Shown one piece after another: positions 1-51,163 of a stretch of DNA of 64,000 bases. Source of the stretch: Marchantia polymorpha subsp. ruderalis (taxonomy: Eukaryota; Streptophyta; Marchantiopsida; Marchantiales; Marchantiaceae); contig AP031351.1 in the NCBI GenBank assembly GCA_037833965.1, forward strand, positions 23,138,501 to 23,202,500, in the 5' to 3' direction. The position numbers and the translations under genes were made by a program. Below the pieces are notes generated by a model. The model was not told the origin of the DNA, searched no databases, and was given only the letters and a program-made list of their open reading frames with translations. Each line of letters starts with the position of its first letter. Within the stretch, counting starts at the first letter, position 1.

Positions 1-944
1 CCGCCGCCGCCACCTTCCGGACTCGAGTCCGCTGCAGGGTATACGTCGGCCCTGTTGTCTTTTCCTAACCCGCCCTTCTCCGGAGGCGTGTCGCCGCTGG
101 TGTGTTCATTATCCGTCGGCGCCTTGCTGGAGGCGCACATCCAGCCGGAGCGAATTACGCCGGCGCGCAGTCGTACCGCCTATTTTGTCCTTTATGCCTC
201 GTCCGTTGCTGCCGGCGCATATCCGTCAGCGCAACTCATGCCAGCGCATCCGGCCGTCAGCGCCACGTCGGAGGCGTACATCCGACCGGCGCTTTCCTTC
301 CATGAACAGCCGCCAAGGGCGCTTCCGACTCTGAGTTGGTTTCCTTCTGTGAGCGCGTGATTCCGCCGAAGGCGCATCGCCGAGGGCGTACGGGAATCCT
401 TTCCGGCTGTGAACCCTAGCGCGAACGGCGCATGTCCGGCTACGAGTTTTCCGACGCTCATAACTTCTCCATTCCTGATCCATCTCCGGCGCTCTTGGAC
501 TCGTTAGAACGAGCGTCCCGAGCTCTGTCTAATGCAACTTCCACCAACTGGATCTACCGTGTATCCCGATTGTTATGAAGGTTTTCCCTTTCCGCGCTAG
601 CGGCGCTTCGCCGAAGGCGCACTCATGGTCGGATGCCTTTAGAGGTCCGGGCCCTTCTCCTGACGTCTTTAGCAAAACCTCCTCCTGAGGTGTCTGCGCC
701 GGAAGCGTAGCTTCCTTATACGCTAGAGGCGCGTGAGTAGAGATACCTCAAAAAGGAGCTTCTGCCGAAGGCGCCGAAGACGTTGGCGTTGGTACATCCG
801 ACTACGTGATTCTTTGTGCCCTCGTGACGATCTCATCAATCCACTCTATTTAGCGTACCCTTCTCTAGCTACAAACACTGCTTTGGTACTAGTTTTCTGA
901 AATTGTTTAAATTCTGCAAAAAAAACAAAAAGTGTGTTACCACA
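1..944 (-). repeat. 3' LTR of element A, U3 start only
   Basis: Identical, as far as compared, to 10670-11613. The boundary at 944 is set by the TGTGGTAAC end (minus strand) and the adjoining polypurine tract. Only the first 944 bp of U3 lie in the window. No gene is present in this part. The short open frames here are GC-rich shadows. The segment is rich in the GCCTTCGGC-type motif. Confidence 0.92.
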
Positions 945-957
945 TGCCCCCCTCCTC
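945..957 (-). other. Polypurine tract of element A
   Basis: On the minus strand this reads GAGGAGGGGGGCA and abuts the LTR start TGTGG. It primes plus-strand DNA synthesis in reverse transcription. The same tract stands before the LTR in element B (18932-18944), and a near copy in F and H. Confidence 0.88.
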
Positions 958-981: not shown

Positions 982-3723
982 TTACACGTGGTATTTCTTC
1001 AGACGCCATCCGTTCACGCGGGTGCCTAACCATTCTCCCGTCAGTTCTGCGAGTTGGATGGATCCATTTGGAAAAACTTCTATCACCTTGTAAGGTCCCA
1101 TCCACCTCAAGTGGAGCTTGCCTGGAAATCTAGCATGTCTGCTATCGTATAGCAGAGCCAAATCGCCCTTCTCCAGCAGTACTGGTTTGAGCCTTCGATC
1201 GTACTTCTCCTTCCGCCTGAGTTGTTATTGCTTTGTCCGATCTTCGGCCTCTTGACGTCTTTCCTCCAGTGCCATTACCTCTTGCAGTCTATATGCCTGA
1301 CTTTCTTCCGCGTCCAGCCTTCTCTGATCTAAGGTCCTCTTGGTAGGTATCTCGAATTCGATGGGTAAGATCGGATGCTGCCCATAAACTAGGAAGTAAG
1401 GTGTTTGCCTGGTGGTGACTTTTTCTGCCGTTCTATATGCCCATAAGGCGGCCGGTAGCTTGGTGTCCCAGTCATGAGCATGGTTTACAGTTACCTTGAG
1501 GAGTATCTTACAGAGTAATCCATTGGACTTCTCTGTCAGACCATTAGCCTTTGGGTTGTATGGAGTAGTCTTCCGATGCTTAATCTGGAAGTGCCGCGTC
1601 AAACTCTCTATCACCTGATTCAGAAAGTGCGTCCCTCTGTCACTGACTATTTCTAGGGGGCACCCGTAGCGGGTGATGATTGATTCGAATATGAACCGTG
1701 CCACTGCGGCTGCGTCATCGTGCCTTGTGGCTTCTGCCTCCACCATCTTGGTCGCATAGTCTGTTGCTACCAATATGTAGCGCCTGCGCGTGCCTTTAGT
1801 GACAGGTTGTATTGGTCCCACGAAGTCGATCCCCCATTTTTCAAATGGTGCTAATGGCATGATTGGTGTAAGAGGCCATCTCGTGGTCGGAGTCGGCCTT
1901 CCCGTCCTCTGGCAGCTGTCGCATTTGCGAACGTAGTCGTGTACATCTTTGAACATCGTCGGCCACCAGTATCCTGCATTCACAATTTTGGTCACTGTGT
2001 TTCTGGTGGCGTAGTGACCACCAGCGTCTTCTGTGTGCATGGCTTTGACAACTCGCGGTACTTCAGACTCCTCTAGACATCTGCACAACCTCTCGTCTGC
2101 CATTTTCTTGAACAAGACCCCCTGTTGAAGCTGGTAAGGTCCCGCTTTATGAACGAAGACTGTGCGCTGCTCCGCATCCAATCCTTTCGGACATTGGAGT
2201 GTGAGCAGAAACCTGTATAAGTCCGCGTACCTGGACTCATGGCTGGCGGACAACTGAAAAAGTTGTTCGTCGGGAAAATCATCCACTACTTCCTCCTCTA
2301 TGGGTTCGGTCCATAGTCGGGAGAGGTAGTCCGCGTTCTCATGGTGAACGCCTTTCCGTGTCTGTACAGTGTAGGTGAATTCCTGCAGCAGTAGCACCCA
2401 CCTGGCAATTCGTCCGGACAGATCCGCCTTCTTCACCAGGTGCTGTAAGGCGTAATGATCTACATGAAACACGAACTCATAGCAGATCAAATAATGTCGG
2501 AACTTCTTACAGGAGTACACCATTCCCAACGCCTCCCTCTCAGTTGTCGTGTACTTCTTCTCTGCTGCTGACAACTGACGACTCGCGAAGTAAATCGGGT
2601 AGTCTTTCTTGTTGTCGTCCTTCTGACTGAGAACCACCCCGATTGCAAACGCCGACGTGTCTACATAGACATGGAAAGGTCTGTTCCAATCCGGACTTCT
2701 CAGAACCGGAGCAGTCGTCAGTTTGGCTTTGAGCGTTTCAAAGGCCAGCTGTTGCTCCTTGCCCCACACATAGGGTTCATCCTTCTTAAGCAGCTTTGTC
2801 AGATCGGCTGCCAAGATGGCATACATATTTATGAACCTTCTGTAATAACCTACATGGCCAAGGAAGGCCCTCAACTCACGCAGATTCGTTGGCGGCTGCA
2901 GTTCGAGAATAATCTTCACCTTCTCTACATCCACTGCAATGCCATCGGACGAAACTCGGTGCCCCAGCAGGATTCCGCTGGTCATGAAGAAAAAACATTT
3001 CTCAGGGTGTAAGGACAAGCTGCTTTCCCTACACCTGTCGAACGTTTGCCGAAGATGGTTAAGGTGCTCCGACCTCTTACCGAAGACACAAAAGTCGTCG
3101 ATGAAAATTTCTAGGAACTTCCTCAGGTGCTCTTGGAAGATGTTTGTCATCATCCGCTGGAACGTCGCTGGCGCGTTGCACAGACCGAACGGCATCTTGT
3201 GATAAGCATAGGTTCCCCAGTCGGTTGTGAAGGTTGTTTTGTCCTTGTCCTGTTCCCTGATGGACACCTGGTTGTAGCCGGAAAATCCGTCTAGGAAACT
3301 GTAGCATTCATGCCCTGCTACATGGTCCAGAATAGAGTCCGTGAAAGGAAGAGGGTGATGGTCCTTCCGCGTTGCTGCGTTCAGCTTCCTGAAGTCCTGA
3401 CACACCCGGATCTTACCCGTCAGTTTCTTGGGCACGATCACGATAGGCGACACCCACTCGCTACTGAGTACCGGGTAGATGATTCCTGCGCTCAGGTACT
3501 TATCGATTTCGTCCTTCACCAATAATGAATATTTTGGGTTGAGCCTGTATTGGCGTTGGCGAACCGGAACTGCCTCGTCCAACAAGTCGATTCTGTGCTC
3601 TCCATACCTTGCAGGTATGCCTTTCATGTCTTCAATCCTCCATGCGAAGACATCCTCATATTGGCGAAGAAACGCCTGTACCCTGTTCAACTCTTCTCCT
3701 TGTACCTGGCTTGACACCTTCAA
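982..3723 (-). CDS. Element A pol: reverse transcriptase, RNase H, integrase
   Basis: This is a fossil or recent retroelement polyprotein. In order it shows an RT with LDGFSGYNQ and the catalytic FIDDF box, an RNase H with YVDTSA, TEREAL and VDHYAL, an integrase HHCC zinc finger (GGHYATRN to CDSCQ), and a D,D-35-E core (GIDFVGPI, VSDRGTHF, LTEKSNG). It ends in an integrase C-terminal GPYKV segment. It copies element RNA into DNA and inserts it. It lies in the same frame as gag, downstream of a stop in a read-through context. It is almost the same as the pol of element B. It looks nearly whole, with about one break. Confidence 0.9.
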
Positions 3724-3816: not shown

Positions 3817-3825
3817 TAGTTGCTA
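3817..3825 (-). promoter_or_regulatory. Gag-pol read-through junction (UAG-CAA-CUA)
   Basis: The gag-protease frame ends in UAG followed directly by CAACUA, which fits the CAR-YYA context known from tobamovirus-type leaky stops. The frame beyond is open into pol. Element B has the same nine bases at 16064-16072. Read-through between gag and pol is known in some plant Ty3/gypsy lineages, and that is the reading preferred here. Direct evidence of use is lacking. Confidence 0.65.
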
Positions 3826-6660
3826 TTCCTCATCCGGATACACCTCGTCTCCTTCCTCCTCAATGGAGCAGCAAGTGACGTAGCCCACAAAGTCTTCCGA
3901 CGTTTCGGTCTCTGAAGTGCATGATGAGCTGGTCTCCCCTCCGGTTGTGTAACCGGAGGTGGTGGAAGGTGTTTCGCCCTCATGGGGTACCTTGGTCCAC
4001 GGTACGGTAATGACAGTCGGAGGGTCCGCAGGGCTACGGAACTGTAATCTCTTCCTACTCCAGTCACACCTTGCTTTGGCATCGTATAGCCAAGGTCTGC
4101 CAAGCAGCACATCATAACCTTTCTTCATCAGAGGTTGCAGTATTATGTAGGACAGTTGAAAGTCCACTCCTCCAATGTTGGTTCTCACATTGCTCAACAT
4201 TCCTAGTGGCATTCTGCGTGTTTGATCGGCCAGTCGCAATACTCGGGATGTAGGCTCGAAGGTCTGGAACCCCAAGGAGTTCGCTGTCTCCTCGGTCATG
4301 ATATTCACGCCCGAGCCGGAGTCCACTGGTACCTTCTGAATGACACAGCCTCCGATCTCTACTTCGATCTCTGGTGGTCCCAGGTCTCCTCCTTCCACTC
4401 TGTACACATCCGGAAGTTTCTCTTTTCGGGGTTTGCGTGGTCGGCGCAACGAAAGCATCAGCATCCTCCTGTACGTCTTATTGTCTTCCAACAACTGGTG
4501 GAAGGAAATATTTGCCCTCTGGTTCCCCATGTCTTTCACTATGTCGTAGGGAGTGTTGGAAGTCACAGCCGGAAGGTTCCCTGTACTCGCGGTCGGAAGG
4601 GGTGTAGGGGGCCTAACCGCCTTCCGGTCGTCGGATGTCATTCCGGCGTTCAGTGCTTCCTTGATGAGGTGACTCACCTCATCTTTGATGTCCGGAAGGT
4701 AATCTCGAGTCCGGAACTCTTCTGAATACCTGTCCGCCTTTTCTGAGTTCTGCTCCGGCTGGGTGTTTCTCATAGCCGGAGGTGTACTTGGCGTTCTCCT
4801 TTGGCCTTCTCTAACTTCTTTAGACTTCCTTCTCTCTTCCTTACGCTCAAGGCGGCGAGTGTCCTCATGGCCTTCTCCTCTCCTCTTCGAACTTCGGGTT
4901 TCTACCCGACCGCACATTACTTCTTCCTCTGGCCATACTTCGTCTCCTTCAGCTGGGTCCAGACTCAGTTCTACCTGGTTGACTTGCACTTCTTCCTTGC
5001 CAGGTGTTGATACGAAACGCACGGCTGGCCTAGGGATTTGGGGCTGGTCACATTCAGCTGCTGTATGTCCGGACTTCTTGCAATTGCTGCACAATGGTGC
5101 ATACCCCATTGGCCTCCTCGGGTGGGGACAACTTGGCGCGTAATGCCCCATGTCTCCGCAGTTGTAGCAACCATCGAATTGTGCTCGAGGTCGGTGATTT
5201 CCTGTGTGATTTCCTGGAGGTGCCATGCGTCTTGGTGGGAGTGTACCCGCCATTTCCCTTGGAACAAAGCGCGGTATATGCACCGGTGGGTTCGGAGTTG
5301 TAGCTGGAGCTGTCTGTACCGAGTAGGCGGTGTCCTCAACCTGCTCAGCATAATACATAGGCGGCTCAGCATAATACATGGGGGTCTCCCACTGTGGTGC
5401 CCATTCGACCGCATTCACTGGGTAAGATGGCCTCGCGGACATGCACTCCGTGTTGGCATGTCCCACCTGTCCGCACGTAGTACACCAGAGATTTGCTCGT
5501 TGTCTCGCAGGTGATTTACGTCGGTCTTGGCCTCCCACTACATGAACTTTCAGGTCCGCAAAATTCTTCACCAGGTTGTCTACCTTGGCTGCGATGTCCC
5601 CTTGAGTCTTCACTGGGATTCCCTTACCTCGATCCTTCTTCTTGATCGCACTGCGTTTCTTCTTCCGTCTTTCTTCTTCTGAAGATGACGAGTCCTCTTC
5701 CTCCTCCGAGGAAGAACTTGATTCGGAGGAGCTTGATTCTTCTGTCGAGGAAGGCGAGTTCCTTCTCTTCCGACGTCCGCCTTGCGACTTCTTCTTCGTC
5801 GACCGTCGGTCGCGTCTTCGAGTGTCAAGGGTTGACGTCTCAAAGGTCTCCGCGGAAGCTATCACATCTTGGATTGTGTCAGTCTTGCCTCTCCTACAGA
5901 AGGTCTCCATTTCTCTTGAGAGCCCCGTCACATACCAATCCACTGCCTGTTGTACCGAATACGGTTCTCCCGGGCCTGTCTTCGGAATTCGATCTAGGAG
6001 GTCTTGGAATCTCTCCGTGTAGTCTCGAAGATTCTCCTTCCGCTCGCGTCGAAGATTTCGAAGCCGGGTCAGAACTCGACTGTCGTATCCGAGTTCGCGG
6101 AACCGCTTCAGAAACTTTTCCTTGAGCTGAGCCCAGGTCCGGATGCCAGTGGGGTCGGTGCTCTCATGGTTGTACCAGCTACGCGCTCGTCTGCGTAGCA
6201 GGCTAGGAAAGATTCGTAATCTGTCTTCATCACTGGTCTCACGATTGGCGATGGAGACAGACTCGAAGAGCTTTATGTATGAATCTGCATCATCGTCGTC
6301 GCCCGTTCCCGTGTATCTTGGATACGAATGTTTGGTGGTAGGTTGGGAAAACACCTGGCGGAGATTGGCTTGATGTTCTGCCATCGGTGATCCTGTCGAC
6401 GGACTGATCCTAGGTTGGCCAAACTCAGGAAGAGTTCCCGTCGGAGGGATGTCCAATAGAACTGTTAGCTCAATGCTCTCGGTAGGTGAACTGGAACGCC
6501 TTTGTCTTCCAGTAGTCGGTGATGGCGATCTTTCTGCAGAGTCCTCACTGGGAGTCTTCTTTTTAGTTCGCCGTTTTGTTTCCACGGCTTTTTCTGAATC
6601 TCGACGGAGTTTCCGTGTGGCTCTCGCACTCAGGTTTCCCACACTATCGCTCGTCGACAT
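3823..6660 (-). CDS. Element A gag-protease polyprotein (945 aa)
   Basis: The N-terminus is basic and serine-rich. Residues about 125-275 carry a Retrotrans_gag-type capsid region (SWYNHE, WAQLKEKFLKRF, LRDYTERFQDLL). A Ser/Glu/Lys-rich linker lies at 300-345. Three CCHC zinc knuckles, which bind the RNA genome, are at 393-406, 498-511 and 524-537. An aspartic protease follows with the active-site motif VDSGSGVNIM at 779-788 and the flap or C-terminal part LLGRPWLYDAKA further on. The start codon is 44 bp downstream of the PBS, which fits a gag start. Pol follows in the same frame after a stop in a leaky context. The frame looks whole. The product builds the virus-like particle. Confidence 0.9.
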   Translation of the reverse strand: MSTSDSVGNLSARATRKLRRDSEKAVETKRRTKKKTPSEDSAERSPSPTTGRQRRSSSPTESIELTVLLDIPPTGTLPEFGQPRISPSTGSPMAEHQANLRQVFSQPTTKHSYPRYTGTGDDDDADSYIKLFESVSIANRETSDEDRLRIFPSLLRRRARSWYNHESTDPTGIRTWAQLKEKFLKRFRELGYDSRVLTRLRNLRRERKENLRDYTERFQDLLDRIPKTGPGEPYSVQQAVDWYVTGLSREMETFCRRGKTDTIQDVIASAETFETSTLDTRRRDRRSTKKKSQGGRRKRRNSPSSTEESSSSESSSSSEEEEDSSSSEEERRKKKRSAIKKKDRGKGIPVKTQGDIAAKVDNLVKNFADLKVHVVGGQDRRKSPARQRANLWCTTCGQVGHANTECMSARPSYPVNAVEWAPQWETPMYYAEPPMYYAEQVEDTAYSVQTAPATTPNPPVHIPRFVPREMAGTLPPRRMAPPGNHTGNHRPRAQFDGCYNCGDMGHYAPSCPHPRRPMGYAPLCSNCKKSGHTAAECDQPQIPRPAVRFVSTPGKEEVQVNQVELSLDPAEGDEVWPEEEVMCGRVETRSSKRRGEGHEDTRRLERKEERRKSKEVREGQRRTPSTPPAMRNTQPEQNSEKADRYSEEFRTRDYLPDIKDEVSHLIKEALNAGMTSDDRKAVRPPTPLPTASTGNLPAVTSNTPYDIVKDMGNQRANISFHQLLEDNKTYRRMLMLSLRRPRKPRKEKLPDVYRVEGGDLGPPEIEVEIGGCVIQKVPVDSGSGVNIMTEETANSLGFQTFEPTSRVLRLADQTRRMPLGMLSNVRTNIGGVDFQLSYIILQPLMKKGYDVLLGRPWLYDAKARCDWSRKRLQFRSPADPPTVITVPWTKVPHEGETPSTTSGYTTGGETSSSCTSETETSEDFVGYVTCCSIEEEGDEVYPDEE

Positions 6661-6703: not shown

Positions 6704-6721
6704 TCCCCGGCAGCGGCGCCA
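6704..6721 (-). other. Primer binding site, tRNA-Asp type
   Basis: On the minus strand the site reads TGGCGCCGCTGCCGGGGA. This matches the complement of the 3' end of plant tRNA-Asp, including CCA, except for one base, from my memory of that tRNA. It lies 22 bp inside the LTR end at 6744, as in the Athila/Tat group, where the same TGGCGCCGTTGCCGGGGA type is usual. Its place fixes 6744 as the inner edge of the 5' LTR. Confidence 0.85.
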
Positions 6722-7661
6722 AAAAGAAGTTGTCGGCTCCTTATGTAATAACCCACCAAAGGCTAAAACTGCAGTATGGTGGTAAAAAGATCGAACCCAC
6801 AGGGACAGAGGCAACACACAGAGTAAAAGTGTCACGTTTAACAGACTTTTGGTAGAGTTTGAATTCTAGGCGACTGTCACTCCCAGAAATACTGTAGTGC
6901 TCGACTCGGAGGCTCGACTCGGAGGAGGAACTCAACTCGGAGGATGCTCGGAGGATGCACGGTACAGCTTGGTCACTCAACACACACACACACACACCTG
7001 AAACTGGCAAAAAGCACAACTCGGAGGTCGGTCAGGACCTCCGCTTCGGATTTCAGGAGGAAAGTGTCTCGCAAGTTCACTCAGAGGTTCTGCAGGAAGT
7101 GCCTCCCACTCCGGCTTTTACTGCCCTTCCGCCAGGAACTAGCGGGGGTACCCGGACTGGACTTCTCACTTCGGAACGAAGCCTCTACGTACGCCGTGGA
7201 CGTCACCCTCGACTATCACACAAAACGCAGGGAGTGCAGACCCGACTGAGAACTTACTGAAAACACGATCCAGTAACACACACACAACCTGAATTACAAA
7301 CCAAGGTTTACACGAAGTAATGAAACTTCACATTGGCATTCAGGGGAAACTTCCCGTAGGAGTACAATCAGGATATGTCACTCGAAGGAGTAAGGGGGAA
7401 CTGTTCAAGTCTCTAACTCGCAGCCGGCTCTGAGTATCAGAAATCACCCGCAGGTGCAGATCCGCACTACTCAAGTCTCTAACCGGGTGCGAGCTCTGAA
7501 CATTCAGCCGAAGGCCTTCAACTACAACATACGGTAACTTCGCTATGCTGCAGCTTCTCTACGTGGTGCCAGGACCAAAATGCACAAACACGCCAAGAAA
7601 GTGAGTTCCTGATCTGCACTTCCGAAACTGGAAGAGTCCCAAGGCAAAACGCCTTGATCTA

Positions 7662-7668
7662 CTTTATA
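7662..7668 (-). promoter_or_regulatory. TATA box of element A 5' LTR
   Basis: TATAAAG on the minus strand, followed downstream by a conserved segment that ends in CAAGGCGTTTTGCC. It lies 34 bp after the stop of the U3 ORF, so the ORF is upstream of the likely transcription start, in U3. The same box is found in all five families or copies that reach this point. Confidence 0.7.
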
Positions 7669-7701
7669 CTCTCAAAAGATCCTAACTAGCACTACGCTAT
7701 C

Positions 7702-10257
7702 CTATCTACCACTCGCAGCATCTGCGCGAAACCAAACTACTCTACTGCACTCGGCAGATCCGGTGCTGCGCCTCCTGCGCGCCGGACTGCTCCGCGTACT
7801 ATCTCTACCCTGCCAGTCTTCCGACCGGCTGCGTAACCCCAGGCGTCGGAGCGCTGCAGTGACTTCCGACTGCAAGTGCGCCATAGTGTCGCGCGCACCC
7901 GACAGAAAAGTTTCTAATTTCCTTGCCACTCGCCGCCGACTCCGACTGTCACCTTCCGTCAATGCCGCCGCCCGAAGCTCGAACTCCCGGAGTGTAACCC
8001 TCTCTTGAGCTGCCACCTCCCAATGGGTGTATCCGTTTAGACAACGAGTCACCCGTGTCGCCAACTCTCCTCGTGCCCTGCTGCTGCTCTCCACCTCTGC
8101 CAGCTGCATTTCTAAATCCGCACGTTGTGTCCTCAAATCCGAGCACTCGGTTTGCAAGTTGCACAACAACTCCTCATCCTCCTTCCGGGCTCTTTGACTT
8201 TCCTCTAAGGCGCGCGTCTGGCGCGCAAGCTCGGCTGCTAGGACTTCGTTCTGTCTCCGCTCCTCCTGCAGTTCCGACTCGATCTTTGCCCGTATTAGTT
8301 CGGCCTCCGCCTGACTCTTCGTCGCCGCATCCTCCTTCTGCTGCTGCAAGGCTTGGTACAGCTTCTGGGTGACCGCCAGGTGTTGTCGGAGGGCGGTGTT
8401 CCTATCCACATATACTCCGCATCTAGAGGCCCACCTTGCCACCTTGCTCCTCGTCCTTCGCCTGATTGTCTCCACATAAGACTGCGGTTTTAAGGCACTT
8501 CCGTATTTGGATGTCTTGCGATCCAGATATCGCAGGAGTGGAACTATCTGTTCGCACAGCACCCCTGTTGGCGTTTTCTGCACTGACTCCTCTTCCTGCT
8601 CTTCCGAGCTCGTATCATCCTCAGTCGCGAGGATTTCAGTCGCCACCGAATCCCTTGGCGACTCCCTGGAACTGTGGCGCGCAGCAGCTTCTGCTGCGAC
8701 TGCTGCTCCACTGCCTGCTAAAATATCCAGGGCAGTGGGAGATCCCACTGCTTGAGCCCCTGTTCCGGCTCGATCTTCGGTTTGTGAAGGGGTCGACGCC
8801 GTAGTGACTTTTGTCACTCTTGCACCGCCCGCTTCTGCTGCCTGTCCTTCCGGCGCAATCTGCGCGGAAGGTGTCCTTGCTGAAGGTGCGTCCGCCGAAG
8901 GCGTCCGCACACTGGTCGTTGGCCCCATCCGTCTTGCAGTCGGCGAATCCGGCTGACTCTCTGTTGTCCGACTCGCAGTCGGCCGACCATTAGTTGTCCG
9001 ACTGGGAGTCGGATACACCCTGCGCGTCTTGACTCCACTTGGCCTACTTGTTGGTGGCGTTCTTCCAGAAGTGCCTTCCGCCGAAGACGACCCTCTGAGG
9101 ATTGTTGGCTCGTCAGCCAAACTCTCTCCCGCTTCCGGCCTGCTGTCCGGTTCAACGCGCCGTTCAGTTGGCCTTCCTTCCGTCTGTCGACCTTCAGTCA
9201 TCCGACTCGCAGTCGGCCGGTCGTCAGTCCGTCCATCTCCTCCCGAAGGCCGTGGTGCCTTCTGTGCAGAGGTTTCTGCCGTCTTCCCTAGAACCTGAGT
9301 GATTATCTCTTCCTGTGTGAGATTCCGCCGGGTCGGAGTTCGCCTGGTCTCCTCAGTAACAGTTGGCATTCTGCGTGCCCTCTGTTTTGGTCGACTATGA
9401 GGCTCGGGGGTGGGCCGACCACGAGTCGGCGCAGCTGGTACTTCCGGCTGCCTGTCCTCAGGTCTCTCATCCCACTTCCGCTTGCGCGGAATGCGCTCAC
9501 TTCGACGTTCTTCTGCTACTCTGGCTGGAGCCGGAGCCGGAGGCGTACTGGCAGGTTCCTCGTCCGGATCCGTGTCTACTTCGGCCTCCCTCGAATATCT
9601 ACCTGGATAAGACCGGCTCAGCTGCGGAAACCGAGTTTTCTCAGCATTCGTCAAACATCCCATCGCCCGGTAAAACACGATTAAGTAAGGCGATAGATGA
9701 TTGAGCGTTCCTCCCCTCTCTTCTTGCGCATGTTGGCGCGTCACCTTCCACAGAAGTCGTGCCCAATGCACCGGAGCTCCTGACAACACTAGCTCCACGA
9801 ACTCTACCTGCCAACCATGCATGTAAGCGGTCTTGGTCGGCTGCAATATCTGCAGCAATGCTGTCGCGACATTTCTCCGCAATCGATCCTTGTAATCCCG
9901 AGTCCGGAAACCGTTCTTGGGATGTCTAGCCACCTTGAAGAGCTCATTGTAAGAGACTTCTTCCTCTTGGGACACTTTCACGCTGTCGGCCTCGAAGAGG
10001 AGATCCCCTTCCTCGCCGGCACACCTGCCCAACACCTGCGCCCAATTGCCAATTTCCCATCTCTCTGGGTGTGGGCGAAATCCGCGAGAAGGCTTGTGTC
10101 TCTCTTGCAGATACTCGCGCACCATCTCCGGACACGTCCAATTCCACCCCCATAGGAGAAAATCGAGCTTCAACCTCAACAGCACATCTTGAAATGCGCG
10201 TAGACCGATCTGCGGCACCCTGAGTGGAGACACTCGCAGCTGGGGAACCTTCGACAT
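7702..10257 (-). CDS. U3-encoded ORF of element A, unknown function (851 aa)
   Basis: The ATG at 10257 (MSKVPQLRV) is chosen because homology with family 2 begins there; an upstream ATG at 10542 would only add a non-conserved leader. Residues about 5-215 form a conserved domain with KLDFLLWGWN, RDYKDRLRRN and GTLNHLSPYL. Residues about 215-630 are low-complexity, rich in Pro, Thr, Arg and Ser, and full of GRPTASR-like repeats. Residues about 633-735 are a clear coiled coil. The basic C-terminal 115 residues are conserved. No signal peptide, membrane segment or zinc knuckle is seen, so it is not an obvious env. The N-terminal part vaguely recalls plant-retroelement accessory proteins of the ATHILA ORF-1 kind, but this is only an impression. 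The frame looks whole. Confidence 0.8.
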   Translation of the reverse strand: MSKVPQLRVSPLRVPQIGLRAFQDVLLRLKLDFLLWGWNWTCPEMVREYLQERHKPSRGFRPHPERWEIGNWAQVLGRCAGEEGDLLFEADSVKVSQEEEVSYNELFKVARHPKNGFRTRDYKDRLRRNVATALLQILQPTKTAYMHGWQVEFVELVLSGAPVHWARLLWKVTRQHAQEERGGTLNHLSPYLIVFYRAMGCLTNAEKTRFPQLSRSYPGRYSREAEVDTDPDEEPASTPPAPAPARVAEERRSERIPRKRKWDERPEDRQPEVPAAPTRGRPTPEPHSRPKQRARRMPTVTEETRRTPTRRNLTQEEIITQVLGKTAETSAQKAPRPSGGDGRTDDRPTASRMTEGRQTEGRPTERRVEPDSRPEAGESLADEPTILRGSSSAEGTSGRTPPTSRPSGVKTRRVYPTPSRTTNGRPTASRTTESQPDSPTARRMGPTTSVRTPSADAPSARTPSAQIAPEGQAAEAGGARVTKVTTASTPSQTEDRAGTGAQAVGSPTALDILAGSGAAVAAEAAARHSSRESPRDSVATEILATEDDTSSEEQEEESVQKTPTGVLCEQIVPLLRYLDRKTSKYGSALKPQSYVETIRRRTRSKVARWASRCGVYVDRNTALRQHLAVTQKLYQALQQQKEDAATKSQAEAELIRAKIESELQEERRQNEVLAAELARQTRALEESQRARKEDEELLCNLQTECSDLRTQRADLEMQLAEVESSSRARGELATRVTRCLNGYTHWEVAAQERVTLREFELRAAALTEGDSRSRRRVARKLETFLSGARDTMAHLQSEVTAALRRLGLRSRSEDWQGRDSTRSSPARRRRSTGSAECSRVVWFRADAASGR

Positions 10258-11613
10258 TGCGTTGCCTGCACACACACAAACGTTCTCCCTTTCGCTCGCT
10301 CTCTCACAATCGCCACTGCGCGTCGGCCACTCAAGCACTGACTGCTCACTCTCTCTGCGCTCGTTCGAGATCGCTACTCCAATTCTTTCAAGGTCCGCCA
10401 AGATCCTTGCGCAACTCGTCTCCGCACTCTCTACTCTCACTGCAGGTCGCTCCGCCCTTGCGCGTAATCTTGGAACTGGAAATCGCAAAGTCAAGAATGA
10501 GAGAATGAGACTGGAGCGCAGTCTTTTCTTCTCCGATTTCAAAAACGTCCAACGTTCTTACTGGTTGCAACGTACGCAGCCGGCTATACGGCTTAACGGT
10601 TCGCCCTTTGCATGCGCGAATTCACGTCTCCGCCTTGCGCGCATTCGCATGCTTAAACGTTGAATTCTCCCGCCGCCGCCACCTTCCGGACTCGAGTCCG
10701 CTGCAGGGTATACGTCGGCCCTGTTGTCTTTTCCTAACCCGCCCTTCTCCGGAGGCGTGTCGCCGCTGGTGTGTTCATTATCCGTCGGCGCCTTGCTGGA
10801 GGCGCACATCCAGCCGGAGCGAATTACGCCGGCGCGCAGTCGTACCGCCTATTTTGTCCTTTATGCCTCGTCCGTTGCTGCCGGCGCATATCCGTCAGCG
10901 CAACTCATGCCAGCGCATCCGGCCGTCAGCGCCACGTCGGAGGCGTACATCCGACCGGCGCTTTCCTTCCATGAACAGCCGCCAAGGGCGCTTCCGACTC
11001 TGAGTTGGTTTCCTTCTGTGAGCGCGTGATTCCGCCGAAGGCGCATCGCCGAGGGCGTACGGGAATCCTTTCCGGCTGTGAACCCTAGCGCGAACGGCGC
11101 ATGTCCGGCTACGAGTTTTCCGACGCTCATAACTTCTCCATTCCTGATCCATCTCCGGCGCTCTTGGACTCGTTAGAACGAGCGTCCCGAGCTCTGTCTA
11201 ATGCAACTTCCACCAACTGGATCTACCGTGTATCCCGATTGTTATGAAGGTTTTCCCTTTCCGCGCTAGCGGCGCTTCGCCGAAGGCGCACTCATGGTCG
11301 GATGCCTTTAGAGGTCCGGGCCCTTCTCCTGACGTCTTTAGCAAAACCTCCTCCTGAGGTGTCTGCGCCGGAAGCGTAGCTTCCTTATACGCTAGAGGCG
11401 CGTGAGTAGAGATACCTCAAAAAGGAGCTTCTGCCGAAGGCGCCGAAGACGTTGGCGTTGGTACATCCGACTACGTGATTCTTTGTGCCCTCGTGACGAT
11501 CTCATCAATCCACTCTATTTAGCGTACCCTTCTCTAGCTACAAACACTGCTTTGGTACTAGTTTTCTGAAATTGTTTAAATTCTGCAAAAAAAACAAAAA
11601 GTGTGTTACCACA

Positions 11614-16072: not shown

Positions 16073-18907
16073 GCAGCCGGACTGGGCAGAAGCGAGATCA
16101 GTCACACAGAGGGGATTGTTGACCCGAGTGATTGCTGCGAACTGCAGCTCAGTCTAGGTAAAGGCTTGAAGGTGTCAAGCCAGGTACAAGGAGAAGAGTT
16201 GAACAGGATACAGGCGTTTCTTCGCCAGTATGAGGATGTCTTCGCATGGAAGATTGAAGACATGAAAGGCATACCTGCAAGGTATGGAGAGCACAGGATC
16301 GACTTGTTGGACGAGGCAGTTCCGGTTCGCCAACGCCAATACAGGCTCAACCCAAAATATTCATTATTGGTGAAGGACGAAATCGATAAGTACCTGAGCG
16401 CAGGAATCATCTACCCGGTACTCAGTAGCGAGTGGGTGTCGCCTATCGTGATCGTGCCCAAGAAACTGACGGGTAAGATCCGGGTGTGCCAGGATTTCCG
16501 AAAGCTGAACGCAGCAACGAGGAAGGACCATCACCCTCTTCCTTTCACGGACTCTATTTTAGACCATGTAGCAGGGCATGAATGCTACAGTTTCCTAGAC
16601 GGATTCTCCGGCTACAACCAGGTGTCCATCAGGGAACAGGACAAGGACAAAACAACCTTCACGACCGACTGGGGAACCTATGCTTATCACAAGATGCCGT
16701 TCGGTCTGTGCAACGCGCCAGCGACGTTCCAGCGGATGATGACAAACATTTTCCAAGAGCACCTGAGGAAGTTCCTAGAAATTTTCATCGACGACTTTTG
16801 TGTCTTTGGTAAGAGGTCGGAGCACCTTAACCATCTTCGGCAAACGTTCGACAGATGTAGGGAGAGCAGCTTGTCCTTACACCCGGAGAAATGTTTTTTC
16901 TTCATGACCAGCGGAATCCTGCTAGGGCACCGAGTTTCGTCCGATGGCATTGCAGTGGATGTAGAGAAGGTGAAGATTATTCTTGAACTACAGCCGCCAA
17001 CGAATCTGCGTGAGTTGAGGGCCTTCCTTGGCCATGTAGGTTATTACCGAAGGTTCATAAATATGTATGCCATCTTGGCAGCCGATCTGACGAAGCTGCT
17101 TAAGAAGGATGAACCCTATGTGTGGGGCAAGGAGCAACAGCTGGCCTTTGAAACGCTCAAAGCCAAACTGACGACTGCTCCGGTTCTGAGAAGTCCGGAT
17201 TGGAATAGACCTTTCCATGTCTATGTAGACACGTCGGCGTTTGCAATCGGGGTGGTTCTCAGTCAGAAGGATGACAACAAGAAAGACTACCCGATTTACT
17301 TCGCGAGTCGTCAGTTGTCAGCAGCAGAGAAGAAGTACACGACAACTGAGAGGGAGGCGTTGGGAATGGTGTACTCCTGCAAGAAGTTCCGACATTATTT
17401 GATCTGCTATGAGTTCGTGTTTCATGTAGATCATTACGCCTTACAGCACCTGGTGAAGAAGGCGGATCTGTCCGGACGAATTGCCAGGTGGGTACTACTG
17501 CTGCAAGAATTCACCTATACTGTACAGACACGGAAAGGCGTTAACCATGAGAACGCGGACTACCTCTCCCGACTATGGACCGAACCCATAGAGGAGGAAG
17601 TAGTGGATGATTTTCCCGACGAACAACTTTTTCAGTTGTCCGCCAGCCATGAGTCCAGGTACGCGGACTTATACAGGTTCCTGCTCACACTCCAATGTCC
17701 GGAAGGATTGGATGCAGAGCAGCGCACAGTCTTCGTTCATAAAGCGGGACCTTACCAGCTCCAACAAGGGGTCTTGTTCAAGAAAATGGCAGACGAGAGG
17801 TTGTGCAGATGTCTAGAGGAGTCTGAAGTACCGCGAGTTGTCAAAGCCATGCACACAGAAGACGCTGGTGGTCACTACGCCACCAGAAACACAGTGACCA
17901 AAATTGTGAATGCAGGATACTGGTGGCCGACGATGTTCAAAGATGTACACGACTACGTTCGCAAATGCGACAGCTGCCAGAGGACGGGAAGGCCGACTCC
18001 GACCACGAGATGGCCTCTTACACCAATCATGCCATTGGCACCATTTGAAAAATGGGGGATCGACTTCGTGGGACCAATACAACCTGTCACTAAAGGCACG
18101 CGCAGGCGCTACATATTGGTAGCAACAGACTATGCGACCAAGATGGTGGAGGCAGAAGCCACAAGGCACGACGACGCAGCCGCAGTAGCACGGTTCCTAT
18201 TCGAATCAATCATCACCCGCTACGGGTGCCCCCTAGAAATAGTCAGTGACAGAGGGACGCACTTTCTGAATCAGGTGATAGAGAGTTTGACGCGGCACTT
18301 CCAGATTAAGCATCGAAAGACTACACCTTACAACCCCAAGGCAAATGGTCTGACAGAGAAGTCCAATGGATTACTCTGTAAGATACTCCTCAAGGTAACT
18401 GTAAACCATGCTCATGACTGGGACACCAAGCTACCGGCCGCCTTATGGGCATATAGAACGGCAGAAAAAGTCACCACCAGGCAAACACCTTACTTCCTAG
18501 TTTATGGGCAGCATCCGATCTTACCCATCGAATTCGAGATACCTACGAAGAGGACCTTAGATCAGAGAAGGCTGGACGCGGAGGAAAGTCAGGCATATCA
18601 ACTGCAAGAGGTAATGGCACTGGAGGAAAGACGTCAAGAGGCCGAAGATCGGACAAAGCAATTACAACTCAGGCGGAAGGAGAAGTACGATCGAAGGCTC
18701 AAACCAGTACTGCTGGAGAAGGGCGACTTGGCTCTGCTATACGATAGCAGACATGCTAGATTTCCAGGCAAGCTCCACTTGAGGTGGATGGGACCTTACA
18801 AGGTGATAGAAGTTTTCCCAAATGGATCCATCCAACTCGCAGAACTGACGGGAGAATGGTTAGGCACCCGCGTGAACGGATGGCGTCTGAAGAAATACCA
18901 CGTGTAA
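16067..18907 (+). CDS. Element B pol: RT, RNase H, integrase
   Basis: Open from the read-through junction to 18907; the first ATG is at 16166. Numbered from that ATG, the RT catalytic FIDD is at residues 207-210 and LDGFSGYNQ at 144-152. The RNase H acidic residues are D355, E395 and D422. The integrase zinc ligands are H563, H570, C601 and C604, and the catalytic triad D633, D695 and E731 has 35 residues between the last two. The C-terminal GPYKVIEVF segment follows, with no chromodomain. The frame looks whole and is the best pol copy in the window. The PPT starts 25 bp after the stop. Confidence 0.93.
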   Translation, partial: QLAAGLGRSEISHTEGIVDPSDCCELQLSLGKGLKVSSQVQGEELNRIQAFLRQYEDVFAWKIEDMKGIPARYGEHRIDLLDEAVPVRQRQYRLNPKYSLLVKDEIDKYLSAGIIYPVLSSEWVSPIVIVPKKLTGKIRVCQDFRKLNAATRKDHHPLPFTDSILDHVAGHECYSFLDGFSGYNQVSIREQDKDKTTFTTDWGTYAYHKMPFGLCNAPATFQRMMTNIFQEHLRKFLEIFIDDFCVFGKRSEHLNHLRQTFDRCRESSLSLHPEKCFFFMTSGILLGHRVSSDGIAVDVEKVKIILELQPPTNLRELRAFLGHVGYYRRFINMYAILAADLTKLLKKDEPYVWGKEQQLAFETLKAKLTTAPVLRSPDWNRPFHVYVDTSAFAIGVVLSQKDDNKKDYPIYFASRQLSAAEKKYTTTEREALGMVYSCKKFRHYLICYEFVFHVDHYALQHLVKKADLSGRIARWVLLLQEFTYTVQTRKGVNHENADYLSRLWTEPIEEEVVDDFPDEQLFQLSASHESRYADLYRFLLTLQCPEGLDAEQRTVFVHKAGPYQLQQGVLFKKMADERLCRCLEESEVPRVVKAMHTEDAGGHYATRNTVTKIVNAGYWWPTMFKDVHDYVRKCDSCQRTGRPTPTTRWPLTPIMPLAPFEKWGIDFVGPIQPVTKGTRRRYILVATDYATKMVEAEATRHDDAAAVARFLFESIITRYGCPLEIVSDRGTHFLNQVIESLTRHFQIKHRKTTPYNPKANGLTEKSNGLLCKILLKVTVNHAHDWDTKLPAALWAYRTAEKVTTRQTPYFLVYGQHPILPIEFEIPTKRTLDQRRLDAEESQAYQLQEVMALEERRQEAEDRTKQLQLRRKEKYDRRLKPVLLEKGDLALLYDSRHARFPGKLHLRWMGPYKVIEVFPNGSIQLAELTGEWLGTRVNGWRLKKYHV

Positions 18908-45593: not shown

Positions 45594-46510
45594 TGTAATA
45601 ACCCACCAAAGGCTAAAACTGCAGTATGGTGGTAAAAAGATCGAACCCACAGGGACAGAGGCAACACACAGAGTAAAAGTGTCACGTTTAACAGACTTTT
45701 GTAGAGTTTGAATTCTAGGCGACTGTCACTCCCAGAAATACTGCAGTGCTCGACTCGGAGGCTCGACTCGGAGGAGGATCTCGACTCGGAGGATGCTCGG
45801 AGGATGCACGGTACAGCGTGGTCACTCAACACACACACACACACACCTGAAACTGGCAAAAAGCACAACTCGGAGGTTGGTCAGGACCTCCGCTTCGGAT
45901 TTCAGGAGGAAAGTGTCTCACAAGTTCACTCAGAGGTTCTGCAGGTAGTGCCTCCCACTCCGGCTTTTACTGCCCTTCCGCCAGGAACTAGCGGGGGTAC
46001 CCGGACTGGACTTCCCACTTCGGAACGAAGCCTCTACATACGCCGTGGACGTCACCCTCGACTATCACACCAAACGCAGGGAGTGCAGACCCGACTGAGA
46101 ACTTACTGAAAACACGATCCAGTAACACACACACAACCTGAATTACAAACCAAGGTTTACACGAAGTAATGAAACTTCACATTGGCATTCAGGGGAAACT
46201 TCCCGTAGGAGTACAATCAGGATATGTCACTCGAAGGAGTAAGGGGGAACTGTTCAAGTATCTAACTCGCAGCCGGCTCTGAGCATCAGAAATCACCCGC
46301 AGGTGCAGATCCACACTACTCAAGTCTCTAACCGGGTACTAGCTCTGAACATTCAGCCGAAGGCCTTCAACTACAACATACGGTAACTTCGCTATGCTGC
46401 AGCTTCTCTACGTGGTGCCAGGACCAAAATGCACAAACACGCCAAGAAAGTGAGTTCCTGATCTGCACTTCCGAAACTGGAAGAGTCCCAAGGCAAAACG
46501 CCTTGATCTA

Positions 46511-46517
46511 CTTTATA
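46511..46517 (-). promoter_or_regulatory. TATA box of solo LTR G
   Basis: TATAAAG on the minus strand, at the same relative position as in element A, downstream of the U3 ORF. Confidence 0.7.
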
Positions 46518-46550
46518 CCCTCAAAAGATCCTAACTAGCACTACGCTATC

Positions 46551-49094
46551 CTATCTACTACTCGCAGCATCTGCGCGAAACCAAACTACTCTACTGCACT
46601 CAGCAGATCCGGTGCTGCGCCTCCTGCGCGCCGGACTGCTCCGCTTACTGTCTCTACCTTGCCAGTCTTCCGACCGGCTGCGTAACCCCAGGCGTCGGAG
46701 CGCTGTGGTGACCTCCGACTGCAAGTGCGCCATAGTGTCGCGCGCACCCGACAAGAAGGTTTCTAATTTTCTCGCCACTCGCCGCCGACTCCGACTGTCA
46801 CCTTCCGTCAATGCCGCCGCCCGAAGCTCGAACTCCCTGAGTGTGATCCTCGCTTGAGCTGCCACCTCCCAATGGGTGTATCCTTTTAGACAACGAGTCA
46901 CCCGTGCCGCCAACTCTCCTCGCGCCCTGCAGCTGCTCTCCACCTCTGCCAGCTGCATTTCTAATTCCGCACGTTGTGCCCTCAAATCCGAGCACTCGGA
47001 TTGCAAGTTGCGCAACAACTCCTCATCCTCCTTGCGGGCTCTTTGACTTTCTTCTAAGGCGCGCGTCTGGCGCGCAAGCTCGGCTGCTAGGACTTTGTTC
47101 TGTCTCCGCTCCTCCTGCAATTCCGACTCGATCTTTGCCCGTATTAGCTCGGCATCCGCCTGACTTTTCGTCGCCGCATCGTCCCTTTGCTGCTGCAAGG
47201 CTTGGTATAGCTTCTGTGTGACCGCCAGGTGTTGTCGGAGGGCGGTGTTCCTATCCACATATACTCCGCACCTAGAGGCCCACTTTGCCACCTTGCTCCT
47301 CGTCCTTCTCCTGATAGTCTCCACATAAGACTGCGGTTTTAAAGCACTTGCGTATTTGGATGTCTTGCGATCCAGATATCGCAGGAGTGGAACTATCTGT
47401 TCGCACAGCACCCCTGTTGGCGTTTTCTGCACCGAATCCGCTTCTTGCTCTTTCGAGCTCGTCTCATCCTCAGTCTCGAGGATTTCAGTCGCCACCGAAT
47501 CCCTTGGCGACTCCCTGGAACTGTGGCGCGCAGCAGCTTCCGCTGCGACTGCTGCTCCACTGCCTGCTAAAATATCCAGGGCAGTGGGAGATCCCACTGC
47601 TTGAGCCCCTGTTCCGGCTCGATCTTCGGTTTGTGAAGGGGTCGACGCCGCAGTGACTTTTGTCACTCTTGCACCGCCCGCTTCTGCTGCCTGCCCTTCC
47701 GGCGCAATCTGCGCGGAAGGTGTCCTTGTTGAGGGTGCGTCCGCCGAAGGCGTCCGCACACTGGTCGTTGGCCCCATCTGTCTCGCAGTCGGCGAATCCG
47801 GCCGGCTCTCTGTTGTCCGACTCGCAGTCGGCCGACCAGCAGTTGTCCGACTGGGAGTCGGATACACCCTGCGCGTCTTGACTCCACTTGGCCTGCTTGC
47901 TGGTGGCGTTCTCCCAGAAGTGCCTTCCGCCGAAGACGACCCTCTGAGGATTGTTGGCTCGTCAGCCAAACTCTCTTCTGCTTCCGGCCTGCTGTCCGAT
48001 TCAACGCGCCGTTCAGTTGGCCTTCCTTCCGCTTGTCGGCCTTCAGTCATCCGACTCGCAGTCGGCCGACTGTCAGTCCGTCCATCTCCTCCCGAAGGCC
48101 GTGGTGCCTTCTGTGCAGAGGTATCTGCCGTCTTCCCTAGAATCTGAGCGATTATCTCCTCCTGTGTGAGATTCCGCCGGGTCGGAGCTCGCCCGGTCTC
48201 CTCAGTACCAGTTGGCATTTTTCGTGCCCTCTGTTTTGGTCGACTGTGAGGCTCGGGGGTGGGCCGACCACGAGTCGGCGCAGCTGGCACTTCCGGCTGC
48301 CTGTCCTCAGGTCTCTCATCCCACTTCCGCTTTCGCGGAATGCGCTCACTTCGACGTTCTTCTGCTGCTCTTGCCGGAGCCGGAGCCGGAGCCGGAGGCG
48401 TACTGGCAGGTTCCTCGTCCGGATCCGTGTCTACTTCGGCCTCCCTCGAATATCTACCTGGATAGTTCCGGGTCAGCTGCGGAAACCGTGTTTTCTCAGC
48501 ATTTGTCAAACATCCCATCGCCCGATAAAACACGATTAAGTAAGGCGATAGATGATTGAGGGTTCCTCCCTTCTCTTCTTGCGCATGTTGGCGCGTCACC
48601 TTCCACAGGAGCCGTGCCCAATGCACTGGAGCTCCTGACAACACTAGCTCTACAAACTCTACCTGCCAACCATGCATGTAAGCGGTCTTGGTCGGCTGCA
48701 ATATCTGCAGCAATGCCGTCGCGACATTTCTCCGCAATCGATCCTTGTAATCCCGTGTCCGGAAACCGTTCTTGGGATGTCTGGCAACTTTGAAGAGCTC
48801 ATTGTAAGAGACTTCTTCCTCCTGGGACACCTTCACGCTATCGGCCTCGAAGAGGAGATACCCTTCCTCGCCGGCACACCTGCCCAACACCTGCGCCCAG
48901 TTGCAAATGTCCCATCTCTCTGGGTGTGGGCGGAATCCGCGAGAGGGCTTGTGTCTCTCCTGCATATACTCGCGCACCATCTCCGGACATGTCCAGTTCC
49001 ACCCCCATAGGAGAAAATCAAGCTTCAGCCTCAGCAGCACATCTTGAAATGCGCGTAGACCGATATGCGGCACCCTGAGTGGAGACACTCGCAA
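46551..49094 (-). CDS. U3 ORF of solo LTR G, unknown function
   Basis: Very similar to the element A product along its length: N-terminal domain (KLDFLLWGWN, GTLNHLSPYL), Pro/Thr/Arg-rich middle, coiled coil and basic C-terminus. It is open for 847 codons from an in-frame ATG slightly downstream of the family start. It looks nearly whole, with about one break. The long open frame in a solo LTR, which has no gag or pol of its own, could still be expressed only from a flanking promoter. Confidence 0.75.
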   Translation of the reverse strand: MRVSPLRVPHIGLRAFQDVLLRLKLDFLLWGWNWTCPEMVREYMQERHKPSRGFRPHPERWDICNWAQVLGRCAGEEGYLLFEADSVKVSQEEEVSYNELFKVARHPKNGFRTRDYKDRLRRNVATALLQILQPTKTAYMHGWQVEFVELVLSGAPVHWARLLWKVTRQHAQEEKGGTLNHLSPYLIVFYRAMGCLTNAEKTRFPQLTRNYPGRYSREAEVDTDPDEEPASTPPAPAPAPARAAEERRSERIPRKRKWDERPEDRQPEVPAAPTRGRPTPEPHSRPKQRARKMPTGTEETGRAPTRRNLTQEEIIAQILGKTADTSAQKAPRPSGGDGRTDSRPTASRMTEGRQAEGRPTERRVESDSRPEAEESLADEPTILRGSSSAEGTSGRTPPASRPSGVKTRRVYPTPSRTTAGRPTASRTTESRPDSPTARQMGPTTSVRTPSADAPSTRTPSAQIAPEGQAAEAGGARVTKVTAASTPSQTEDRAGTGAQAVGSPTALDILAGSGAAVAAEAAARHSSRESPRDSVATEILETEDETSSKEQEADSVQKTPTGVLCEQIVPLLRYLDRKTSKYASALKPQSYVETIRRRTRSKVAKWASRCGVYVDRNTALRQHLAVTQKLYQALQQQRDDAATKSQADAELIRAKIESELQEERRQNKVLAAELARQTRALEESQRARKEDEELLRNLQSECSDLRAQRAELEMQLAEVESSCRARGELAARVTRCLKGYTHWEVAAQARITLREFELRAAALTEGDSRSRRRVARKLETFLSGARDTMAHLQSEVTTALRRLGLRSRSEDWQGRDSKRSSPARRRRSTGSAECSRVVWFRADAASSR

Positions 49095-50471: not shown

Positions 50472-50476
50472 ACTCC
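50472..50476. repeat. Target site duplication of solo LTR G, right copy (ACTCC)
   Basis: ACTCC directly after the G start; pairs with 45589-45593. Confidence 0.9.
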
Positions 50477-51127: not shown

Positions 51128-51163
51128 CCTTCTAAGTCCTAACTAGCACTACACTGCACTACA

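What the first reader, a model, noticed from the sequence alone, without database searches (positions are those of the whole stretch)
6744..11613. Giant LTRs (4.9-5.4 kb) that each carry a long accessory ORF
Seen: complete LTR units at 6744-11613, 45594-50471 and 56865-62258, with matching TGT...ACA ends, a PBS inside one end and PPTs beside the other. Each holds a frame of about 850-960 codons. Known: most plant Ty3/gypsy LTRs are shorter and non-coding, while extra ORFs of Tat/Ogre/Athila elements lie between the LTRs. Inference: here the accessory gene has become part of the LTR, so every full element has two copies and every solo LTR keeps one.
Basis: partly seen in the sequence, partly recalled or inferred. 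Interest (0 to 1): 0.92.

Follow-up and report, generated by a model that had tools for sequence, protein, structure and literature searches.

The report
Retrotransposon gene inside its terminal repeats
An abundant group of mobile elements in a liverwort genome (almost certainly Marchantia polymorpha) keeps a conserved protein gene inside its two long terminal repeats instead of between them, an arrangement known from a mouse retrovirus but that I did not find reported for plant elements.

Summary
The three LTR units are real. 6744-11613 is the 5' LTR of a complete 15.5-kb Ty3/gypsy element: its partner LTR differs at 1 of 4,870 bases, and 5-bp target duplications (TSDs) flank the element. 45594-50471 is a solo LTR with its own TSD. 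56865-62258 is a 3' LTR of a second family. All carry the same accessory ORF: intact (851 codons from a conserved ATG) in the first, damaged in the other two. Near the window, four complete first-family elements could be delimited; all eight of their LTRs hold the intact ORF. Of the 48 best genome copies, 44 form 22 pairs at LTR spacing. The ORF is under purifying selection (median dN/dS 0.27; p down to 6e-34), and LTRs of at least four families carry it or its remains, the most distant only 41% identical over 104 residues. A conserved TATA box just after the ORF puts the gene in U3, so genomic RNA should carry it only at its 3' end, as with MMTV sag. The protein has no membrane segment, no Pfam or fold match, and no named homologue outside Marchantia in the searches run. 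Function unknown; my best guess is a nuclear regulator. New variant of a known kind.

The parts
6744..11613 (-). 5' LTR (4,870 bp) of complete first-family element A; LTR start = 11613, end = 6744
   Evidence: Partner LTR 1/4,870 different, TSD ACAGT both sides
7702..10257 (-). U3 accessory ORF, 851 codons from the conserved ATG (open frame continues upstream to 10542)
   Evidence: homologues with a similar start; dN/dS
7663..7668 (-). TATA box about 33 nt after the ORF stop; marks the inferred U3/R boundary region
   Evidence: Conserved in three families; extended motif exact 4,154 times in the genome, reversed control 0
6744..7640 (-). inferred R-U5, about 0.9 kb; the best conserved non-coding part between families
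   Evidence: boundary inferred from the TATA box
6704..6721 (-). PBS-like TGGCGCCGCTGCCGGGGA, 22 nt beyond the LTR 3' end (resembles the complement of a tRNA-Asp 3' end; recalled, not tested)
   Evidence: LTR-leader junction 1,181 exact copies
3823..6660 (-). gag-pro ORF, 945 aa (gag, zinc knuckles, aspartic protease)
   Evidence: Pfam
1225..3723 (-). pol ORF, 832 aa (RT, RNase H, integrase); ends earlier than the 913-aa frame of copy B
   Evidence: Pfam
945..957 (-). polypurine tract GAGGAGGGGGGCA directly before the 3' LTR
   Evidence: PPT-LTR junction 1,138 exact copies
1..944 (-). start of the 3' LTR of element A; it continues to -3925 (L001:4575)
45594..50471 (-). solo LTR, 4,878 bp, inserted into second-family LTR F
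   Evidence: TSD GGAGT both sides
46551..49094 (-). U3 ORF of the solo LTR, 847 codons open; an in-frame stop near the start
56865..62258 (-). 3' LTR (5,394 bp) of a second-family (E) element; pol-like ORF 62296-63888 and a PPT precede it
58793..61012 (-). E-family U3 ORF, first part (739 aa open); second part 57875-58726 (283 aa) after a stop
   Evidence: intact E copies of 951 and 966 aa in L004 and L012
18945..25102 (+). 3' LTR (6,158 bp) of first-family element B; ORF cut to 698 codons; 60-bp tandem repeats at 22868-23536
16166..18907 (+). pol ORF of element B, 913 aa, ends 37 nt before the LTR; no chromodomain found
50472..55462 (-). second-family LTR F, interrupted by the solo LTR; its last part is at 45272-45593
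10266..10267 (-). AG of a possible splice acceptor (GTGTGTGCAG) 8 nt before the ORF start
   Evidence: inference only
7252..7257 (-). possible splice donor GTAAGT in the leader; a similar site in family E, none in the third family
   Evidence: inference only

Best explanation
Shown: this is a Ty3/gypsy group, with no chromodomain detected, in which a conserved accessory gene (851-966 codons where intact) lies inside both LTRs and is kept by selection on the protein (tested within the first and second families and between the first and third). In these three families it lies upstream of the LTR's own TATA box; in the first two the polypurine tract that starts U3 was seen as well. Inferred from standard reverse-transcription logic: the gene is the 3'-terminal gene of the genomic RNA (R-U5-gag-pro-pol-PPT-U3[ORF]-R) and is copied into both LTRs of each new insertion from that single 3' copy, as with MMTV sag. 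Most likely origin: a downstream extra ORF was engulfed when the polypurine tract came to lie directly after pol, which moves the U3 boundary upstream. Inferred and weak: the protein (helical N-terminal domain, low-complexity middle with a basic stretch, coiled-coil-like C-terminus, no membrane segment) is a nuclear, self-associating regulator of the element, made from a spliced or U3-initiated message. I give the architecture about 0.95 and this function about 0.35.
For: Architecture: paired LTRs with TSDs; 8 of 8 frames intact in the 4 complete elements delimited, plus LTR x1; 22 same-strand pairs spaced 10,588-10,671 bp among the 48 scored copies, 47 of 48 without a stop. Selection: median dN/dS 0.27 for the ORF (30 of 36 pairs with dS > 0.02), 0.15 gag-pro, 0.04 pol (pairs are not independent); A against A26 0.255, p 6e-34; N-terminal domain 0.016-0.21 in four pairs; A against S gives 0.22 in frame, 0.85 and 2.07 in the other frames, A against e1 0.28, 0.84 and 1.23. 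U3 placement: TATA box about 33 nt after the stop in A, 36 in E, conserved in the third family. Breadth: LTR-borne ORF with TSDs in the third family and, broken, in family V, one copy of which is 41% identical to A over 104 residues, E 1e-26. Function hints: PRKRKWDE-like basic stretch after the N-domain in A and E, Kyte-Doolittle maximum at most 1.37 in 4 of 4 proteins.
Against: No RNA data: transcription start, splicing and translation are unproven. The splice-donor-like site is in families A and E but not in the third. The frame signal is weak for copy B (0.59 in frame against 0.94 and 0.85), whose alignment is full of gaps. For family V a TATA-like site was seen in one of two copies only, both copies are broken and no complete element was read, so U3 placement is untested there. 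The basic stretch was not flagged in A26 by the same pattern. Pfam, NCBIfam, PDB and BFVD gave no lead; no coiled-coil predictor was run. The origin by a PPT shift rests on no intermediate element.
Confidence: 0.85

Rival explanations
1. The ORF is a chance open frame in a long G+C-rich LTR and codes for nothing.
For: It is G+C-rich, its middle part is low-complexity and fast-changing (dN/dS 0.37-0.49), and many copies in old LTRs are broken.
Against: Synonymous excess with p from 2e-8 to 6e-34 in the true frame in four pairs; N-domain dN/dS as low as 0.016; similar start and end in separate families; shifted frames of A-S and A-e1 look neutral.
Confidence: 0.02
2. The units are not LTRs; the ORF lies in an internal or tandemly repeated stretch.
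For: One LTR (x1) lies between two internal regions, and tandem or segmental copies exist.
Against: TSDs at both ends of complete elements and of solo LTRs, PBS-like leader on one side and PPT on the other.
Confidence: 0.01
3. The gene was captured straight into U3 from the host or from another mobile element, not engulfed by a shift of the polypurine tract.
For: No relative with the gene in an internal position was found that would show an ancestral state; gene capture by plant retrotransposons is described in general in PMC7264820 (first of three parts read).
Against: No host homologue among named hits outside Marchantia (capped candidate lists); no remains of a second element's ends were noticed, though none were searched for specifically.
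Confidence: 0.3
4. The protein is env-like or a cell-to-cell movement factor.
For: Env-like ORFs of plant elements occupy the same 3' sense place in the RNA (PMC7264820).
Against: No membrane segment in 4 of 4 intact proteins tested (19-residue Kyte-Doolittle maximum 1.14-1.37).
Confidence: 0.08
5. The protein is a structural or RNA-binding cofactor of the particle (a second gag-like protein).
For: Helical domain, coiled-coil-like C-terminus and basic stretches; selection strength closer to gag-pro than to pol.
Against: No zinc knuckle or capsid match; no fold match for the N-domain model.
Confidence: 0.2

Closest known systems
Mouse mammary tumour virus sag (superantigen, LTR-encoded); passages of PMC11998498 seen
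   Same: An accessory protein encoded within the LTR.
   Different: Betaretrovirus of mice; Sag is a type II membrane protein; the liverwort protein has no membrane segment and no named relative outside Marchantia; it is 851-966 aa and the LTR about 5 kb.
HIV-1 nef (overlaps the 3' LTR; recalled) and foamy virus tas and bel-2 (PMC7828637, passages and figure legends)
   Same: 3'-terminal accessory genes; Tas regulates viral transcription, a possible functional parallel (its nuclear place is recalled).
   Different: bel genes are named for lying between env and LTR; nef overlaps the LTR only in part (recalled); here the whole gene is inside U3.
Plant LTR retrotransposons with additional ORFs (aORF/eORF): Athila, Bagy2, Grande, RIRE2, Retand, SIRE (PMC7264820, first of three parts; PMC6317226, passages)
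   Same: LTR retrotransposons with a conserved extra gene; 3' sense position in the RNA as described for Athila and SIRE.
   Different: Those ORFs are described as lying in the internal region; here the ORF is inside both LTRs. The word Marchantia does not occur in the main text of PMC6317226.
Retrosat2 / RIRE3 / RIRE8 of rice (PMC3485330, abstract and passages)
   Same: Unusually long LTRs (about 3 kb and more) together with a fast-evolving extra ORF0.
   Different: ORF0 is described as upstream of the gag-pol ORF, not in the LTR.
Barley LARD LTRs and Revolver (PMC2851119, two passages)
   Same: 5-kb LTRs that share both end regions with Revolver, an element with a 139-aa ORF.
   Different: The passages seen report shared ends only, not a conserved gene inside the LTR; I did not read the rest.

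Membership tests
Ty3/gypsy LTR retrotransposon | gag, protease, RT, RNase H, then integrase | tested here: met
   Pfam on gag-pro and pol ORFs
Ty3/gypsy LTR retrotransposon | paired LTRs TG..CA with short target duplication, PBS and PPT | tested here: met
   exact 5-bp TSD in 3 of 4 complete elements, 4 of 5 bases in the fourth, whose 3' LTR ends in ACT; the PBS is judged by sequence only
Plant chromovirus | chromodomain at the C-terminus of pol | tested here: not met
   No chromodomain at E <= 1 in the 913-aa pol of B
Tat lineage | second RNase H domain (aRH) | tested here: inconclusive
   Only the RT-linked RNase H models match; a diverged aRH could be missed, and no RT tree was built
Athila lineage (OTA without aRH) | RT phylogeny | not tested
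   No reference RT set was at hand
Plant elements with eORF/aORF | extra ORF between the LTRs | tested here: not met
   The ORF lies within the LTR in the copies delimited
MMTV-type U3 accessory gene | complete ORF between PPT and U3 promoter, present in both LTRs | tested here: met
   the promoter is inferred from a conserved TATA box
MMTV-type U3 accessory gene | expression from a spliced or internally started message | not testable with these tools
   No RNA data; splice-like sites only partly conserved
MMTV Sag protein family | type II transmembrane protein | tested here: not met
   No segment reaches 1.6 on the Kyte-Doolittle scale in 4 proteins

The most novel reading that the evidence does not exclude
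A plant retrotransposon group has made its LTR a portable gene: promoter, terminator and a selected nuclear regulatory gene in one 5-kb repeat, so that solo LTRs, normally the silent leftovers of an element, can go on carrying a protein that acts on the whole family or on host chromatin. The related proteins annotated as Marchantia host genes would then be LTR-encoded, and some could have been taken over by the host.
Probability: 0.3. Interest if true: 0.88.

Novelty: new variant of a known kind. Interest (0 to 1): 0.72.

Why it matters
LTRs of plant retrotransposons are treated as regulatory, non-coding DNA, and solo LTRs as coding-dead (general knowledge). Here a gene under purifying selection is part of the LTR, with the gene or its remains in at least four families and 4,154 exact copies of the LTR promoter motif in one 241-Mb genome. 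It gives a plant parallel to MMTV sag, a case that extra-gene surveys limited to the internal region can miss, and a likely reason why copies are annotated as host proteins (34 of 38 hits and 86 of 92 bear a Marchantia polymorpha name). It also makes a question testable in a model liverwort: does a retrotransposon gain by placing an accessory gene downstream of its polypurine tract?

Tried and rejected
Chance ORF and wrong boundaries were tested and rejected (see rivals). I first weighed a leader gene in R-U5; the TATA box after the stop moved it to U3. A splice donor in the leader looked conserved between families A and E, but the third family lacks it, so I keep splicing only as a possibility. 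My first dN/dS frame was off; its 'shift 2' rows are the true frame, as one search confirms. The e1 against x2 row (0.62 overall) is not used: that copy's frame runs off the end of the fetched piece and its C-terminal part does not align; the A against E951 row gives no usable dS (saturated). The C6 match of P0014, for which one search gives a 902-aa open frame, looked like a lone intact gene; the fetched DNA shows one 296-aa frame and a piece of LTR-like sequence at 74-77% identity, no LTR pair, so I read it as a decayed remnant. The pattern for a tRNA-Asp gene end found nothing, so the tRNA identity of the PBS-like site is untested.

Literature: ten searches and passages of the papers that I opened showed no report of an ORF inside plant LTRs; only openly licensed PMC papers are held and only the top rows of each listing were seen, so this is not proof of absence.
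Full report
What was checked. The window lies on contig C2 (23138501-23202500) of a 241-Mb genome in 9 contigs. Named relatives of the LTR ORF all bear the name Marchantia polymorpha subsp. ruderalis: 10 of 10 hits, 34 of 38 and 86 of 92; the rest are unnamed. One of them (P0014) is 100% identical over 254 residues to a locus of this genome, and Mp_8g15400 (P0024) is 95% identical to the window ORF over 53% of the query. I therefore read the source as M. polymorpha or a very close form; this is inference.

Boundaries. Element A runs from 11613 to -3925 on the minus strand: 15,539 bp, LTRs of 4,870 bp with one difference, TSD ACAGT on both sides. In the 280 kb around the window I could delimit three more complete elements of the same family (15,522, 15,524 and 15,534 bp); their LTR pairs differ at 9, 6 and 1 positions; TSDs are TGCAC and CATAA in two, 4 of 5 bases alike in the third. 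Other copies there are truncated, nested or tandem and were not counted as complete. 45594-50471 is a solo LTR with TSD GGAGT. 56865-62258 belongs to a second family (E); its left end follows a PPT and pol-like sequence, its right end lies in pol-like sequence of another copy. A separate E-family LTR (C2:23062233-23067601) has TSD GGGAG. Genome-wide exact counts: LTR right end 5,443, U3/R TATA motif 4,154, LTR-leader junction 1,181, PPT-LTR junction 1,138, all with 0 in the reversed control. By these exact matches about one right end in five is joined to a leader, so many LTRs are 3', solo or truncated.

The ORF. Nine first-family LTRs near the window hold the 851-codon frame: eight in the four complete elements and one in LTR x1. 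Other first-family copies there do not: the solo LTR has an in-frame stop, B has 698 codons, a copy at 23266077 (86% identity) has frameshifts. Genome-wide, 48 copies were scored of 14,899 first-look candidates; 47 have no stop, and 44 form 22 same-strand pairs spaced 10,588-10,671 bp, the LTR-to-LTR distance. These are the best-scoring copies, so the intact share is not that of all copies. In the E family two intact frames of 951 and 966 codons were read and several broken ones. Matches to older relatives mostly hold stops.

Selection. For the ORF the median dN/dS is 0.27 (range 0.20-0.45, 30 of 36 pairs with dS over 0.02), for gag-pro 0.15 (6 of 6 pairs), for pol 0.04 (9 of 10 pairs); pairs share copies and are not independent. 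In one search: A against e1 0.278 (p 1e-8), A against x1 0.291 (p 2e-8), A against A26 0.255 (p 6e-34), E951 against E966 0.268 (p 8e-13). The N-terminal 230 residues are tightest (0.016-0.21 in these four pairs), the middle loosest (0.37-0.49), the C-terminus 0.22-0.40. In the other two frames A-S gives 0.85 and 2.07, A-e1 0.84 and 1.23; A-B is weak (0.59 in frame, 0.94 and 0.85 out of frame) because of B's gaps. This reflects selection on the lineage of active copies.

Where in the LTR. In A the ORF ends at LTR position 3912 and a TATA box starts at 3946; in E the ORF ends at 4384 and the TATA box starts at 4421. The sequence around it is conserved in three families, including a short hairpin (CAAGGCGTTTTGCCTTG in A, CCAGGCGTTTTGCCTGG in E) in which one pair is changed on both sides. 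From there to the LTR end A and E are 66-93% alike in 150-bp windows; the 1.35 kb before the ORF is 39-58% alike in a forced alignment, close to chance. So the ORF is in U3 in these families. By standard reverse-transcription logic (established knowledge, not tested here) U3 begins at the PPT and genomic RNA holds U3 only at its 3' end. The gene is thus the last gene of the RNA and is copied into both LTRs of each new insertion.

Breadth. A third family (about 79% DNA identity to A) was read as three solo LTRs, two with exact 5-bp TSDs and one with 4 of 5 bases alike, with one intact ORF (853 codons from its ATG), one cut short and one split. A fourth group (V) has a homologous protein: its copy L027:699-1694 is 41% identical to the A N-domain over 104 residues, E 1e-26 for that single comparison. 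Two copies delimited by comparison are LTR-like units of 3,529 and 3,478 bp, TGTGGG to CATTACA, with TSD TCTTC in one and 4 of 5 bases alike in the other; both ORFs are broken. A further old group (P0014) was read only as one decayed remnant.

The protein. N-terminal helical domain (model residues 81-170 in blocks of 77-94 pLDDT, one good model of five), P/S/T-rich low-complexity middle, C-terminal part with weak hits to coiled-coil families, a basic stretch PRKRKWDE / PRKRRWRE after the N-domain in A and E, no membrane segment in 4 of 4 proteins. No convincing family and no fold match.

What it is like. MMTV sag is called an LTR-encoded protein (PMC11998498, passages). The plant review and the survey that I saw in part place extra ORFs in the internal region (PMC7264820: first of three parts, and a term check of the main text; PMC6317226: passages). 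Rice Retrosat2 has long LTRs and an extra ORF0, but upstream of gag-pol (PMC3485330, abstract and passages). Barley LARD LTRs share end regions with Revolver (PMC2851119, two passages). My ten answered literature searches showed no plant LTR with a coding gene inside; the library holds openly licensed papers only and I saw the top rows of each listing.

Verdict. The architecture is firm. The origin by a shift of the polypurine tract is the simplest account but has no intermediate. The function is open; a nuclear regulator is my best guess at about 0.35. New variant of a known kind (LTR retrotransposon with an accessory gene), interest 0.72.

Noticed in passing
window 6704-6743; junctions in L002, L006, L010 (first family) and L002, L009 (E family): The PBS-like site begins 22 nt beyond the LTR 3' end in the four complete first-family elements and two E-family junctions read; the right end of the cDNA would have to lose about 22 nt before integration, which looks unusual.
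   Followed up: partly
window 22868-23536 (element B LTR): An array of 60-bp units (11 copies) lies in the region of this LTR that departs from A, in a 6,158-bp LTR with a shortened ORF; around the TATA box B resembles the third family (mosaic).
   Followed up: partly
G000 C5:17.58-17.99 Mb and C1:2.2-3.2 Mb: Element copies recur at about 102-kb (once 202-kb) steps on C5, and LTR motifs at about 393- and 366-kb steps on C1: probably large segmental duplications.
   Followed up: no
G000 C2:23195365, 23223434 and 23235795: Two E-family LTR right ends lie at the same pol position with nearly the same flank, suggesting a local duplication of a nested insertion.
   Followed up: no
L022 (C2:23123380-23128247): An LTR with a PPT on its left and a leader on its right: probably a tandem element sharing one LTR.
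   Followed up: no
window 11603-14413: pol of another Ty3/gypsy family (936 aa, with a weak SH3_Tf2-1 match) next to the 5' end of element A, which seems to have inserted into it.
   Followed up: no
M. polymorpha annotation: 34 named proteins, 86: Relatives of these LTR ORFs are annotated as host hypothetical proteins, a few with gag, RNase H or integrase domains in the same gene model (P0057, P0128, P0129).
   Followed up: partly
G000 C7:22096583 (+) and 22107168 (-): Two intact first-family ORF copies in opposite orientation about 10.6 kb apart.
   Followed up: no
window 7640-7656: A short hairpin follows the TATA box; one of its pairs is A-T in family A and C-G in family E.
   Followed up: no
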